A stretch of DNA of 25,627 nt from a virus, in IMG/VR virus record IMGVR_UViG_3300044632_002328, positions 1 to 25,627 of that record. One strand, given 5' to 3'. Below the pieces are notes generated by a model, which did not search any database, was not told the origin of the DNA, and was given only the letters and a program-made list of their open reading frames with translations. Position 1 is the stretch's first letter; each line of letters starts with the position of its first letter. This document shows positions 3,445 through 23,239 of the stretch, piece after piece. Made by a program: the position numbers and the translations under genes.

Positions 3445-3468
3445 GGGTTCCTTCCCCCTCCGGGAAAA

Positions 3469-3506
3469 CCCCCTGGCGCGTTCCGTCGAAGGTCGCAGCC
3501 AGGGGG
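3469..3506 (-). terminator. GC-rich hairpin with T-run upstream of gene 3007-3444
   Basis: Perfect 9-bp stem CCCCCTGGC/GCCAGGGGG with a 20-nt loop. On the minus strand it is followed by TTTTCCC and then the ribosome site of the 3444 start. It fits a rho-independent terminator or a leader attenuator, because the next start lies only 24 nt past the stem. Confidence 0.6.
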
Positions 3507-3525
3507 CTATCCGGGGGCTCTGAAA

Positions 3526-3583: not shown

Positions 3584-4105
3584 TCAGGACGCGAGGGGCT
3601 TCACAAGGAAGTCCTTGCGATAGGTGCGTCCGTTGACGTTGTCGTACTGGCACTTGACCACGACTGCCACGGCCTGGTCGCCGTTGATGCGTGCATCTGC
3701 CTCGGCGAGAGCCGTGGCAATGTCCTTGACATCGCGGCGGAGGATGGTCTGAAGGTGGCCCTTCAGGCGGCGCATCTCGATCTCGACACGCATGCGGCCC
3801 TTGTCATCGAGGGACGAGGTGTCCTGCGGGAGCCGGAACGCCGAACCGTCGAAGGAGCGGGGCTCGTTGGGCTGGTCAGGATCGTTGATGAGCTGGTACC
3901 GGAACACGATCTCGGTGCCGGGGACCTTCTGGCCGTCAGGCATCTTGAACTCGCTGGCACGCACGTTGAGGCTGGACACGAACACGTCGTGCTGGCCTTC
4001 GGCGGGCCACCAACCGCCAGCACCCATGCCGTTGTCGGGCTGGGCCTGCGCGAAGGTGTTGTTGAGCGAGTTGAACATGGCCTTGACGTTGTTCTCAATG
4101 GGCAT
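3584..4105 (-). CDS. Putative ssDNA-binding protein (DUF669-like)
   Basis: A 173-residue protein from ATG 4105 with ribosome site GGAG (ACGGAGCATCAG). It has the β-rich pattern of phage OB-fold-like proteins: GWWPAEGQHDVFVSSLNV, then a polar strand set (PGTEIVFRYQLI), a FRLP turn, a helical HLQTILRRD segment, and a final strand pair RTYRKDFLVKPL. No catalytic residues seen. The placement directly after a Sak4-like ATPase and a PD-(D/E)XK nuclease fits a single-strand-binding role in phage recombination or replication; the family assignment is from memory of DUF669-type proteins and is an inference. The leader carries an 11-bp hairpin and a pyrimidine tract like those before the second such gene (20858-21466), suggesting shared translational control. 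Confidence 0.55.
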   Translation of the reverse strand: MPIENNVKAMFNSLNNTFAQAQPDNGMGAGGWWPAEGQHDVFVSSLNVRASEFKMPDGQKVPGTEIVFRYQLINDPDQPNEPRSFDGSAFRLPQDTSSLDDKGRMRVEIEMRRLKGHLQTILRRDVKDIATALAEADARINGDQAVAVVVKCQYDNVNGRTYRKDFLVKPLAS

Positions 4106-4198
4106 CTGATGCTCCGTAAAGAGGGGTGAAAGAAACGAAACGAACGAAACAGAGTCTGGGAAGCGAACGCGGTTCCCGCGTCAGCGGACCGCGTTCGC
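4106..4198 (-). promoter_or_regulatory. Hairpin plus pyrimidine-rich leader of ssDNA-binding-like gene
   Basis: The stem GCGAACGCGGT (4163-4173) pairs perfectly with ACCGCGTTCGC (4188-4198) around a 14-nt loop that holds the stop codon of the ATPase gene (4181). On the transcript it is followed by about 57 nt rich in U and C, including CGTTTCTTTCA, with little visible structure, then GGAG and the start at 4105. No run of Ts follows the stem, so a plain terminator is unlikely. The same layout precedes the gene at 21466. Confidence 0.5.
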
Positions 4199-5080
4199 GC
4201 TCTCGTACGCGGCGCAGAAGGATTGCCACGCATTCTCACGCGGCAGCTCGAAGGTCGAGAGCGGAGTGAGCGTGCGGACCTTCGCGATGCCGTCGAGCTT
4301 GGGGTTGTCGAACGAGGCGTAGTGCCTGCGGATCTTCTGCTGGCTCGTGACCTTGCGGCTCACGGGCTTGCCGTTGATCTCCACCGTCTGCTCGGTCACG
4401 ACTTCGCGGGTGTCCCACTGGGCCGTGACGGGGATGACGATGTCGAACATGGGGAACATGCGCGCGTACAGGCCGTCCGAGATGAGGATCTTGTACTCCT
4501 CGACATGCTGGTTCTCGCTGAGCGGAACGTGCTTGCGGGACAGGTGGGCGATGTAGTAGACGCCGTAGCCGTGCCGGCGCAGGCTCGTGCCAAACTCGAT
4601 GAGCGTGTCGAAGAGGCGTTCCCAGCCCAGCCGGCCATCGACGTCCGTGAACCGCTCGCGTCCGTAGAGCTTGGCGATGTGCGGACGCAGCAGGCGGATC
4701 GCCGCGCCGAGCGTGTCGATGACGACGGTTTCTGGTCGGGGCTGGTTGCTCTTGGCAAGGTCGAGAAGGACCTTGTGCTTGGCCTCGAGCGCAGCCCAGT
4801 CGATCACGACCGGGTTGCCTCGCTCATCGATGGAGCGTCCGTCCGGTCCGGGCGTGGGGAACATGACGGCTTCGCTGGTCGAGCACACTGCAGGAGTCTC
4901 GTCCAGATTGAGGATGTACGCGCCCGGATGGGACTGGAGGAGGAAGGACTTGCCGCAGCCTGCCTCACCGACCACGAGTCCAAGCATGCGAGAAGGAACG
5001 CTACGACCAGTAGAAACGGCATTGCCGAGCCCTGCGTACTTGGAGGCGATGGTGGGACCGTGAGTGACGGAGTGTGTCAT
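4181..5080 (-). CDS. Sak4-like / AAA_24 phage recombinase-mediator ATPase
   Basis: A 299-residue P-loop ATPase from ATG 5080 behind a strong AAGGAG site. Walker A is GEAGCGKS at residues 38-45, followed by the β-strand AYILNLDETP typical of phage nucleotide-binding proteins. Walker B is VVIDTL with Asp122. The length and the RecA-like core match Sak4-type single-strand annealing or recombination-mediator ATPases (AAA_24), which act with a phage SSB. Here it lies between a putative DNA-binding protein (5090-5629) and the ssDNA-binding-like gene (3584-4105), which supports that role. Its C-terminal codons overlap the leader hairpin of the next gene. An alternative is a generic AAA_24 protein of unknown process. 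Confidence 0.75.
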   Translation of the reverse strand: MTHSVTHGPTIASKYAGLGNAVSTGRSVPSRMLGLVVGEAGCGKSFLLQSHPGAYILNLDETPAVCSTSEAVMFPTPGPDGRSIDERGNPVVIDWAALEAKHKVLLDLAKSNQPRPETVVIDTLGAAIRLLRPHIAKLYGRERFTDVDGRLGWERLFDTLIEFGTSLRRHGYGVYYIAHLSRKHVPLSENQHVEEYKILISDGLYARMFPMFDIVIPVTAQWDTREVVTEQTVEINGKPVSRKVTSQQKIRRHYASFDNPKLDGIAKVRTLTPLSTFELPRENAWQSFCAAYESANAVR

Positions 5081-6809: not shown

Positions 6810-7140
6810 AGTCGGGACTCCTGGGGGTGAGCGCACGCGGGGCGCACCGCGCCTCCCCGCGTGCGCGACTCTAGGGGGAGGGGGTGTAGTATCTGCTTCA
6901 CCGCCGTTGATCTAATCGCTCGCTTCGGTCGGAAGCCAACAACAAGATGCCGTGTGTTCCCCGGCAATGTGGGTAGTGGGAATCCCACACGGCGGCTGTG
7001 ATGAATTGTCGGTCGCCGGATAGAAAGTGCTACAGATCTTCACAAGTGTGGTGGGTCCGTACACGTTATTTGGGACTGTCGATCCCACGTACGCGGTAAT
7101 GAAGACTTGTAAGAGTTTCTTACAAGTGGAAGTTTAAGCT
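6810..7140. other. 331-nt noncoding control region with inverted repeats
   Basis: No convincing gene. From right to left it holds a 10-bp perfect dyad ACTTGTAAGA-GTT-TCTTACAAGT (7105-7127), another ACAAGT at 7042, a TGGGA-N7-TCCCA pair (7071-7087), the palindrome GTGGGA-A-TCCCAC (6976-6988), a GCTTC-N5-GAAGC hairpin near 6932, and the 12-bp GC hairpin at 6831-6866. A weak minus-strand promoter guess is TTGGCT, 18 nt, TTAGAT around 6910-6945. It probably ends the phosphoesterase operon and starts the recombination operon. Confidence 0.55.
6831..6866 (-). promoter_or_regulatory. Perfect 12-bp GC-rich leader hairpin before nuclease gene
   Basis: GCGCACGCGGGG pairs with CCCCGCGTGCGC around a 12-nt loop, ending 21 nt before the nuclease start at 6809. 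No T-run follows; the AGGAG ribosome site lies between hairpin and start. It fits a transcript-stabilising, processing or attenuation element better than a terminator. Confidence 0.5.
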
Positions 7141-16896: not shown

Positions 16897-17141
16897 GCCA
16901 GGTCCTCGGAGATGTGGAGGTGGCCGGGCCCGTTGCCTTCGGGGTCACGCAGGATCTCGGTGTAGAGGAAGTGTTCCTTGCCGGACTCGTCGGTTCGGCT
17001 GAAGACGAAGCCGTATGCGGTTTCCTCGGGGACTCCCTCGGATGCGTAGATGATCACGGTCTTGGCGGTGTAGCCGATCAGCTGCTCGAGGTAGGTGGCA
17101 TACGGATCCTTGTCGGCGGGTGGGGTGGCAGGGTTGGTCAT
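16893..17141 (-). CDS. Hypothetical protein, 82 aa
   Basis: The start chosen is ATG 17141, ATGA-coupled to the UDG stop; the longer frame upstream is a shadow of UDG. It has a helix (YATYLEQLIGYTAKTVIIYA) followed by strands (TAYGFVFSRTDESGKEHFLYTEIL) and a final HLHIS. No family recognised. Probably cytoplasmic. Confidence 0.6.
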   Translation of the reverse strand: MTNPATPPADKDPYATYLEQLIGYTAKTVIIYASEGVPEETAYGFVFSRTDESGKEHFLYTEILRDPEGNGPGHLHISEDLA

Positions 17142-17854
17142 CGGAGCGTGCCTTGCCGGAATGCGGCGTTGTTGAGGTTGGCCTCGGTCACTGGGTAGAA
17201 GGGTTCGCGGATGAGGGGAGCGGACGGGCGTGCGAGTTCTCCGGTCAGGAAGTTGCGGAGCAGGGCCATGTGATCTGCGACCGGGTGGATGAGGCCGGGC
17301 TCGCGCAGGACTGCAGCCGGGTGGTACGTGGCGAAGAAGTGCGTGCGCGACAGGGTCGGGATGGCGATGCCCTGGGTACGGAAGGCATCCTGCTGGGAGA
17401 GTGCACGCTTGGACCAGGTGCGGGACAGGTGCGTGACCGGGTCGGCACCGGCGCACAGTATGGCACGGGCGGTGGCCGGGATGTGGTGCTCGAGGATGGA
17501 CTGGATGTCGGCGAGCGTGTGGCTGAAGCAGGTGCGGTAGTGGGCGGGCTTGGGCTTGCCGCCGGGTGACACGCACCGGGCCACGTTGCAGAGGTACACG
17601 GTGGCGAGGGAGTTGATGCCGGAGCCCGTGAGGTACGGGCCGGACAGGAGCTGGCCCGACGGGCCGATCCAGCACTCGCCGGCACGGTCCTCTTGGGTGC
17701 CGGGGTTCATGCCGATGACGATGACGACCGGGTTGGCGGGGTCAGGGGGAAGGCTGGTGGGGAGATGGCGGGACGGGATGCCTACGTTCTTGGCGGAGGA
17801 ATGGAGATCGCATGCCGTGCATGACGGCTTGGCGGGGAGCAGCGTGAGTTGCAT
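17138..17854 (-). CDS. Family 4 uracil-DNA glycosylase (Fe-S type)
   Basis: A 238-residue protein. Start ATG 17854 is chosen because GAGGAACGAC gives a strong ribosome site and the sequence then opens with the family's usual CxxC (PSCTACDLH). It removes uracil from DNA. The four expected Fe-S cysteines are CTAC near residues 14-17 and C/C in NVARCVSPGGKPKPAHYRTC. The first catalytic motif is GMNPGTQEDRAG, with WIGPSGQLL after it. A late motif TYHPAAVLR matches the usual HPS-type active-site loop. The gene heads the polymerase operon, so it may guard phage DNA from uracil or assist replication. 10-mer copies occur inside it (17753) and just before it (17884). Confidence 0.85.
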   Translation of the reverse strand: MQLTLLPAKPSCTACDLHSSAKNVGIPSRHLPTSLPPDPANPVVIVIGMNPGTQEDRAGECWIGPSGQLLSGPYLTGSGINSLATVYLCNVARCVSPGGKPKPAHYRTCFSHTLADIQSILEHHIPATARAILCAGADPVTHLSRTWSKRALSQQDAFRTQGIAIPTLSRTHFFATYHPAAVLREPGLIHPVADHMALLRNFLTGELARPSAPLIREPFYPVTEANLNNAAFRQGTLR

Positions 17855-20139: not shown

Positions 20140-20178
20140 CCCCCGGCGAGGGGGCGCGAACGCGTCCCTCGCCGGGGG
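20140..20178 (-). terminator. 13-bp perfect GC hairpin
   Basis: CCCCCGGCGAGGG pairs with CCCTCGCCGGGGG around a 13-nt loop; on the minus strand ATTTGT follows. It lies past the stop of the gene ending at 20191 and 28 nt before the next start (20111), so it is either a weak terminator or a leader hairpin. Confidence 0.55.
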
Positions 20179-20857: not shown

Positions 20858-21466
20858 TCAGCGGCGACCCTTCACGAGGGTGCGCTTGGCCCGGCGTGAG
20901 GGCTGTTCGGCGTGACCGTCGACGTCATCGCCGGTGAACGAGGCGGCGGGGTCCGACTCGTTGGCGGCGGAGATGTAGGAGGGGTTGGCCTTGGTGCCCT
21001 TCACGTTGGCGTACATGCCGTCGTCCGTCCACGTGATGAACGGTGCGACGCGCTGTCCGGGCAGGGTTGCGGCGAGGGCAGCGATGTTGATGAACGAATC
21101 ACGGACGGCCGTGGGGTTGGCGGACTCCAGTGCGTTGGCGAGTGCCTTGCAGGCAGAGTAGCAGCGGTCACGGTCGTGGCCTGCGATGGCCATGAGGTCG
21201 CAGAAGACATTGGCGCCAGCCCACATGAAGCCGTTGGGTCCGACGAACGAGACGAGGTCGTTGACGCGGAGGTTGGGCTTGCCGGCCTCCTGGTCGACGG
21301 TCATCTGGACCTGCAGGCGGAGCGTGAAGTTGTCCTTGCTGTCCTTGGTCTGCGGGACGACGCCGGTGATGGTCGCGGAATAGCGGCCAGCCGGGTAGTC
21401 GGCGGGAGTCGGACGGGCAAAGCGCGAGAAGTCGAGCGAGGCGAGCGAGTCAAACTTGATTTCCAT
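20858..21466 (-). CDS. Second putative ssDNA-binding / DUF669-like protein
   Basis: A 202-residue protein. ATG 21466 is chosen because CAGGAAACTGCC provides the ribosome site and the longer frame would translate through a hairpin. The N-terminus is MEIKFDSLASLDFSRF, followed by PAGRYSATITGVVPQTKDSKDNFTLRLQV, the typical β-strand pattern of small phage OB-fold-like proteins. Then come NDLVSFVGPNGF and a helical middle. The end is basic and polar (AEQPSRRAKRTLVKGRR). Family link is inferred. It shares an unusual leader layout with the gene ending at 3584, suggesting a functionally similar partner. Confidence 0.55.
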   Translation of the reverse strand: MEIKFDSLASLDFSRFARPTPADYPAGRYSATITGVVPQTKDSKDNFTLRLQVQMTVDQEAGKPNLRVNDLVSFVGPNGFMWAGANVFCDLMAIAGHDRDRCYSACKALANALESANPTAVRDSFINIAALAATLPGQRVAPFITWTDDGMYANVKGTKANPSYISAANESDPAASFTGDDVDGHAEQPSRRAKRTLVKGRR

Positions 21467-21557
21467 GGCAGTTTCCTGTGAAAGAGATGAAAGAAGAAAT
21501 GAAAGAAACGGAAGCAACCCCACGCGGGGGGCGCGAAGCGCATCCCCCCGCGTGGGG
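21467..21557 (-). promoter_or_regulatory. 14-bp hairpin plus pyrimidine-rich leader of second ssDNA-binding-like gene
   Basis: CCCCACGCGGGGGG (21518-21531) pairs perfectly with CCCCCCGCGTGGGG (21544-21557) around a 12-nt loop. On the transcript it is followed by 51 nt that are almost all U and C with CGTTTCTTTCA inside, then the start at 21466. Further upstream, 21558-21580 is also a pyrimidine tract on the minus strand. Confidence 0.5.
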
Positions 21558-22325: not shown

Positions 22326-22360
22326 GAAAAAACACTGCTCCCCCGCAGGCAAGGGGGAGC
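22326..22360 (-). terminator. Rho-independent terminator
   Basis: GCTCCCCC pairs with GGGGGAGC around an 8-nt loop, followed on the minus strand by AGTGTTTTTTC. A classic intrinsic terminator. Confidence 0.85.
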
Positions 22361-22400
22361 AAGAGGGGTCGGGGTGTGACAGATCGAACTCATCGCCCGG

Positions 22401-22442
22401 CTAAAAGAAAACCCCTCGTAGCCGGTTAGGGCTACGAGGGGT
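22401..22442 (-). terminator. Rho-independent terminator after gene 22455-22814
   Basis: ACCCCTCGTAGCC pairs with GGCTACGAGGGGT (13 bp) around a 6-nt loop, with TTTCTTTTAG after it on the minus strand. It lies 12 nt past the stop codon, with the second terminator 40 nt beyond. Confidence 0.9.
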
Positions 22443-22814: not shown

Positions 22815-23239
22815 AGCGTGCTCCTTTCGAGCATGGTGGGATTCGAGTGCTGCTCTGGCCGACTGGACAGAGAGAAACAACACCCGTTTCCCCCTGTAGG
22901 AAACGGAATAGTGACTCGCGCTTTGGCATCGTCATCGGCTCTGTGTCTGGGTGTCCGGTAACGATGGACGTAGGCTGTGGCGTCTGCGTTGGGTGGCGAT
23001 CTGGGGGGAGGGGCGTCGGCCCCCGCGCTGTGCGTCTGTTACGGGGGAAAGGCCCTATCTCTCTCAAAATTCCCCAACAAATCCCTAACCCGTACCGGGA
23101 GTACCAGACTTCTTCTCTTATATAGAAGAGGTATATATAAAGAATAGGGGAGCCTGTCTCTCGGTACGCCCGGTACCCGTACAGCGACCAAAAAGAACCC
23201 CCCACCAACCCGAAGGCGATGGGGGGCGAGAGGGGAGTA
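22815..23239. other. 425-nt noncoding region with AT-rich core
   Basis: No convincing gene in any frame. It holds an AT-rich block around 23106-23150 (TATATA, TATAAA), unlike the GC-rich surroundings. A 14-bp inverted repeat frames it: GTACCGGGAGTACC (23092-23105) and GGTACGCCCGGTAC (23163-23176), 13 of 14 matching. Next to it is the terminator of the 23240-23491 gene. Promoter-like hexamers can be read in both directions. Candidate origin or early promoter. Confidence 0.55.
23198..23226 (-). terminator. Rho-independent terminator with TTCG loop
   Basis: On the minus strand a C6 arm (CCCCCCATCGCC), the loop TTCG and the arm ending GGTGGGGGG pair with one bulged base, followed by TTCTTTTTGG. 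It lies 14 nt past the stop of the gene at 23240. The near-match to the dispersed 10-mer here is part of the stem. Confidence 0.85.

What the first reader, a model, noticed from the sequence alone, without database searches (positions are those of the whole stretch)
4106..4198. Hairpin plus pyrimidine leader before an SSB-like gene (copy 1)
An 11-bp perfect stem followed by about 57 nt of U/C-rich, seemingly unpaired leader precedes the start at 4105. The same design precedes the second SSB-like gene. T4 gp32 represses its own mRNA by binding an unstructured leader next to a folded element (established), so a parallel autogenous control is plausible.
Basis: partly seen in the sequence, partly recalled or inferred. 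Interest (0 to 1): 0.6.

Follow-up and report, generated by a model that had tools for sequence, protein, structure and literature searches.

The report
Conserved leader before phage SSB genes
In a family of uncultured phages, two different genes for proteins that probably coat single-stranded DNA each carry the same kind of untranslated leader, a GC-rich RNA hairpin followed by a U/C-rich unstructured stretch; the layout resembles the leader through which phage T4 lets its own single-strand-binding protein shut off its own synthesis.

Summary
On the minus strand, an 11-bp perfect stem (4163-4198) and a 57-nt U/C-rich leader (4106-4162) precede the gene 4105-3584. The hairpin straddles the stop codon of the upstream Sak4-like gene, with UGA in the apical loop. 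It is kept in 28 distinct leaders with compensatory changes. A different hairpin with the same kind of leader precedes the SSB-like gene 21466-20858 and also covaries. Across 12 phage records (the window and 11 relatives), all 18 leaders of these two genes are U/C-rich (Y>=0.75, U>=0.45), against 0 of 217 other intergenic leaders. The tract is enriched in U, not C. Both proteins are sequence orphans with predicted OB-like folds; the first resembles DUF669 phage SSBs and sits next to Sak4, as those do. Best explanation: autogenous translational control, SSB in excess over ssDNA coating leader and ribosome-binding site as T4 gp32 does. Binding and repression were not testable here. A U-rich ribosome-loading leader for abundant proteins is the main rival. 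The hairpin alone is not SSB-specific. New variant of a known kind: gp32-like by analogy, not by descent.

The parts
4181..5080 (-). Sak4-like AAA ATPase / annealing-protein gene upstream of SSB1; its last codons form the 5' arm of the hairpin
   Evidence: PF13479 3.3e-13, phrog_124 1.2e-9
4163..4198 (-). Covarying hairpin 1: 11-bp outer stem (4188-4198 with 4163-4173), 4-bp inner stem (4184-4187 with 4176-4179), loop UGAC (4180-4183) holding the Sak4 stop codon
   Evidence: covariation in 28 distinct leaders
4106..4162 (-). 57-nt leader: C-rich spacer, then U/C tract with GUUUC repeats (about 4121-4150), then GGAG at 4112-4115
3584..4105 (-). SSB1: DUF669-like, OB-type predicted protein, 173 aa
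21518..21557 (-). Covarying hairpin 2: 14-bp GC stem
   Evidence: covariation in 11 distinct leaders
21467..21517 (-). 51-nt U/C-rich leader of SSB2 with AGGA before the start
20858..21466 (-). SSB2: OB-like predicted protein, 202 aa; conserved start at 21466, not at the longer ORF start 21844

Best explanation
Each element is the 5' leader of an SSB gene and works as an autogenous translational operator. Shown here: a conserved, covarying GC hairpin ends about 47-63 nt before the start codon, and a U-rich, G-poor leader runs from it to the Shine-Dalgarno site; in this lineage only the two SSB genes have this. Inferred: while replicating ssDNA is plentiful, SSB is titrated and the open leader loads ribosomes well. 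Once SSB exceeds ssDNA it coats the U-rich leader, which mimics its ssDNA ligand, and covers the ribosome-binding site. The hairpin bounds or nucleates that binding and separates it from the upstream cistron. At SSB1, ribosomes ending at the Sak4 UGA in the loop would open the hairpin, which may tie SSB1 control to Sak4 translation (speculative).
For: Hairpin 1: 13 double-sided changes against 3.7 in shuffles, 0 of 500 shuffles reach it; hairpin 2: 100% paired, 16 against 3.8. The leader separates SSB genes from all others: 18 of 18 against 0 of 217; U content rank 1 or 2 in every record in which the genes were tagged; the only two such tracts in the window. The tract keeps its composition while its letters diverge between clades. 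Two genes with no detectable sequence relation share it. Protein 1 has a DUF669-like fold and a Sak4 neighbour (PMC5928155). Layout parallels the T4 gene 32 operator (PMC3014915, PMC535899).
Against: No binding or repression data. SSB identity rests on predicted folds and gene context; SSB2's model is poor (pLDDT 64) and its PDB matches are weak. GC hairpins precede other genes too. In some relatives the tract is not among the least paired. A U-rich leader also suits plain high expression.
Confidence: 0.5

Rival explanations
1. Ribosome-loading leader: the U-rich unstructured tract is a standby or S1-type enhancer that gives the abundant SSBs high translation; the hairpin only insulates or stabilises the mRNA. 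There is no feedback.
For: U-rich, G-poor, mostly open just upstream of a good Shine-Dalgarno site. SSBs are abundant proteins (general knowledge).
Against: None of about 60 other genes per genome has it, including the likely capsid gene by gene order (G001 26266-27771, Y 0.54, U 0.19; the capsid was not identified by sequence). It does not explain why the tract is confined to two SSBs or why it always follows a conserved hairpin.
Confidence: 0.3
2. Transcription or RNA-processing site: the hairpin is an attenuator, terminator, or RNase/3'-end-protecting element between cistrons, and the tract is a by-product.
For: GC hairpins recur between genes here, some followed at once by T runs and therefore terminator-like (22411-22442, 22335-22362, 22883-22907).
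Against: The two SSB hairpins are not followed by an immediate T run and were not reported by the terminator scan; U runs start about 9-13 nt after the stem. Hairpins elsewhere lack the U/C tract.
Confidence: 0.12
3. Rho utilisation site giving conditional termination before the SSB genes.
For: The tract is G-poor, pyrimidine-rich and has many UC steps.
Against: C is not enriched (0.29 in SSB leaders against 0.32 elsewhere), U is (0.53 against 0.19); the tract is only about 35-45 nt.
Confidence: 0.05

Closest known systems
T4/RB69 gene 32 autogenous operator (PMC3014915, PMC535899)
   Same: SSB gene; folded element tens of nt upstream; adjacent unstructured, repeat-bearing leader running into the ribosome-binding site; the fold overlaps an upstream reading frame in T4 as here
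   Different: Plain GC hairpin instead of a pseudoknot; U/C (GUUUC-type) instead of UUAAA repeats; SSBs of unrelated sequence; repression not shown; two SSB genes share the design
T4/RB69 gene 43 (DNA polymerase) operator (PMC3014915)
   Same: Simple hairpin about 40 nt upstream plus sequence over the ribosome-binding site; loop UAAC there, UGAC (UAAC in L135) here, perhaps by chance since this is a stop codon
   Different: Regulator is a polymerase; short stem; no U/C tract described
Sak4-ssb (DUF669) pairs of HK620 and phiAT3 (PMC5928155)
   Same: SSB gene directly downstream of sak4; DUF669-like fold
   Different: Genes abut or overlap, no leader and no U/C tract
STAXI RNA motif (PMC2864571)
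   Same: Structured element near SSB and other DNA-handling genes
   Different: Tandem pseudoknots; no Rfam family matched the window

Membership tests
gp32-type autogenous SSB operator | Downstream gene encodes an ssDNA-binding protein | tested here: inconclusive
   Predicted OB-like folds and Sak4 context; no binding assay
gp32-type autogenous SSB operator | Folded RNA element upstream of the ribosome-binding site | tested here: met
   Covarying hairpins
gp32-type autogenous SSB operator | The fold is a pseudoknot | tested here: inconclusive
   Nested hairpin predicted; the tools do not predict pseudoknots
gp32-type autogenous SSB operator | Unstructured leader between fold and start codon | tested here: met
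   Mostly unpaired near the start; above the genome mean in every tagged case
gp32-type autogenous SSB operator | A+U-rich leader with UUAAA/UAAA repeats | tested here: not met
   Leader is U/C-rich, GUUUC-type repeats
gp32-type autogenous SSB operator | The SSB represses translation of its own mRNA | not testable with these tools
   Needs bench work
DUF669 / Sak4-associated SSB (for SSB1) | Gene next to sak4 | tested here: met
   phrog_124 neighbour, kept in relatives
DUF669 / Sak4-associated SSB (for SSB1) | DUF669 fold | tested here: met
   Foldseek best viral match DUF669, E 1.7e-5, probability 1.0, TM about 0.4
DUF669 / Sak4-associated SSB (for SSB1) | Matches the Pfam DUF669 model by sequence | tested here: not met
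   No such Pfam match for any of 23 members
Intrinsic terminator | GC stem followed at once by a T run | tested here: not met
   Neither SSB hairpin reported by the scan; U runs begin about 9-13 nt later
Rho utilisation site | C-enriched, G-poor leader | tested here: not met
   G-poor but C not enriched: 0.29 against 0.32

The most novel reading that the evidence does not exclude
A class of SSB-sensing mRNA leaders, apparently independent of T4's, in which two sequence-unrelated SSBs of one phage are controlled through the same hairpin plus U/C-tract design, possibly each repressing both genes, with SSB1 further tied to Sak4 translation because the Sak4 stop codon lies in the hairpin loop.
Probability: 0.25. 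Interest if true: 0.7.

Novelty: new variant of a known kind. Interest (0 to 1): 0.55.

Why it matters
Autogenous control of a phage SSB through an unstructured mRNA leader is established for T4 and its relatives. A sequence-unrelated, covarying leader used by two different SSB genes in an uncultured lineage would suggest that SSB self-titration through ssDNA-like mRNA leaders evolved more than once. It gives a compact test system with natural variants already aligned.

Tried and rejected
Rfam: no match at gathering score, one chance-level snoRNA hit on the other strand. tblastn of both SSBs and of Sak4 against isolate phages: none. SSB1 profile against prokaryote genomes: none, so the host is unknown. 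Profile comparison of SSB1 with SSB2: no sequence relation. Sigma-70-type promoter in the leaders: none reported. Whole-leader folding energy is unremarkable (z -0.71), so energy alone would have missed it; covariation carries the case. Naming the capsid gene by sequence failed.

Full report
What is there. Most of the window's minus strand carries a phage replication and recombination module. The gene at 4105-3584 (SSB1, 173 aa) follows a Sak4-like ATPase at 5080-4181. Between them lie 75 nt. An 11-bp perfect stem spans 4198-4163, and inside it is a further 4-bp stem closed by UGAC. The UGA is the Sak4 stop codon. The next 57 nt are a C-rich spacer, a U/C tract with GUUUC repeats and a Shine-Dalgarno-like GGAG. 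The second gene (SSB2, 21466-20858) has a 14-bp stem at 21557-21518 and a 51-nt leader of the same style.

Conservation. More than 40 IMG/VR contigs carry relatives, with SSB1 proteins down to about 53% identity and SSB2 to about 45-52%. Every SSB1 leader and every SSB2 leader examined keeps hairpin plus tract. Hairpin 1 keeps 92.9% of cells paired over 28 distinct leaders, with 13 double-sided changes (shuffle mean 3.7; 0 of 500 reach it; slid versions 0-4). Its 5' arm encodes the last Sak4 residues, so the non-coding arm follows changes in coding sequence. Hairpin 2 keeps 100% of cells paired over 11 distinct leaders, with 16 double-sided changes (shuffle mean 3.8; slid versions 0-1). The rows are related, so these counts are not independent events.

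Specificity. I called genes in the window and 11 related records with my own script and scored the stretch -50 to -13 before each start. The SSB genes rank first or second in U content in every record where they were tagged; SSB2 of G010 and G012 was missed by the tag in that script and is counted in the next one. Among genes with at least 50 nt of intergenic space, 18 of 18 SSB leaders and 0 of 217 others pass pyrimidine >=0.75 and U >=0.45. Means: U 0.53 against 0.19, C 0.29 against 0.32, G 0.10 against 0.30. In the window no other place on either strand has such a tract; in relatives a few others exist, but not before a predicted start. The thresholds were set after seeing the SSB values; the lowest SSB U is 0.46 and the highest other 0.43, with no other leader high in both measures. 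Gene starts are predictions and the records are related. GC hairpins by themselves also precede other genes, so only the combination is SSB-specific.

The proteins. Neither SSB matches Pfam or NCBIfam. The SSB1 model is good (pLDDT 86). Its best viral fold match is a DUF669 protein (E 1.7e-5); its best PDB matches are the ssDNA-bound protein PrgE and then RPA and SSBs, none below E 0.001. A DUF669 protein encoded next to sak4 was shown to be a true SSB in HK620 (PMC5928155). SSB2 has a weak PHROG SSB match in 7 of 8 members and a poor model whose best matches are RPA and PriB at E >= 0.03. SSB1 and SSB2 show no sequence relation to each other. So SSB1 is a probable SSB and SSB2 a plausible one.

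Mechanism. In T4, gp32 in excess over ssDNA binds a pseudoknot 67 nt upstream of its start and spreads through an unstructured A+U-rich leader over the ribosome-binding site (PMC3014915, PMC535899). The present leaders have the same order and similar spacing with different letters. A U-rich tract is a natural ligand for an SSB (general knowledge of SSBs). That two unrelated SSB genes share it and no other gene does is the main argument for control by the product. It does not by itself separate feedback from a translation enhancer for abundant proteins, and both could be true: a ribosome-loading tract for which SSB competes. A terminator is disfavoured because U runs begin about 9-13 nt after the stem, while other hairpins of this window have them at once. 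A Rho site is disfavoured because C is not enriched.

Comparison. HK620 and phiAT3 have sak4 and ssb abutting without a leader, and N4 ssb has a 45-nt A/T-rich gap. So the leader is a feature of this lineage, not of Sak4-linked SSBs in general. The element is described as working like the gp32 operator, not filed as a member: UUAAA repeats are absent and repression is untested. I know of no report of this leader; the paper library searched is incomplete.

Noticed in passing
window 4180-4183: The Sak4 stop codon sits in the apical loop (UGAC) of a covarying hairpin in all relatives (UAAC in L135); this could couple termination with the next cistron. T4 gp43's operator loop is UAAC.
   Followed up: partly
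window 22335-22442 and 22883-22907: Three GC hairpins followed at once by T-rich runs look like intrinsic terminators between small genes upstream of SSB2.
   Followed up: no
window 20140-20178 and 6831-6866: GC hairpins with 12-13 bp stems end 21-28 nt before two other genes, without the U/C tract; role unknown.
   Followed up: partly
G002:C1:3162-3488 and G004:C1:21162-21377 (upstream of SSB2): A small gene just upstream of SSB2 has a hairpin and a C-rich, U-poorer leader (Y 0.81-0.89, U 0.19-0.32), perhaps a related element.
   Followed up: no
window 17138-17854: Phage-encoded family-4-like uracil-DNA glycosylase, below the curated cut-off.
   Followed up: no
window 3460-3515: Imperfect 18-nt inverted repeat (83% complementary) in the gap after SSB1, possibly a terminator or processing site.
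   Followed up: no
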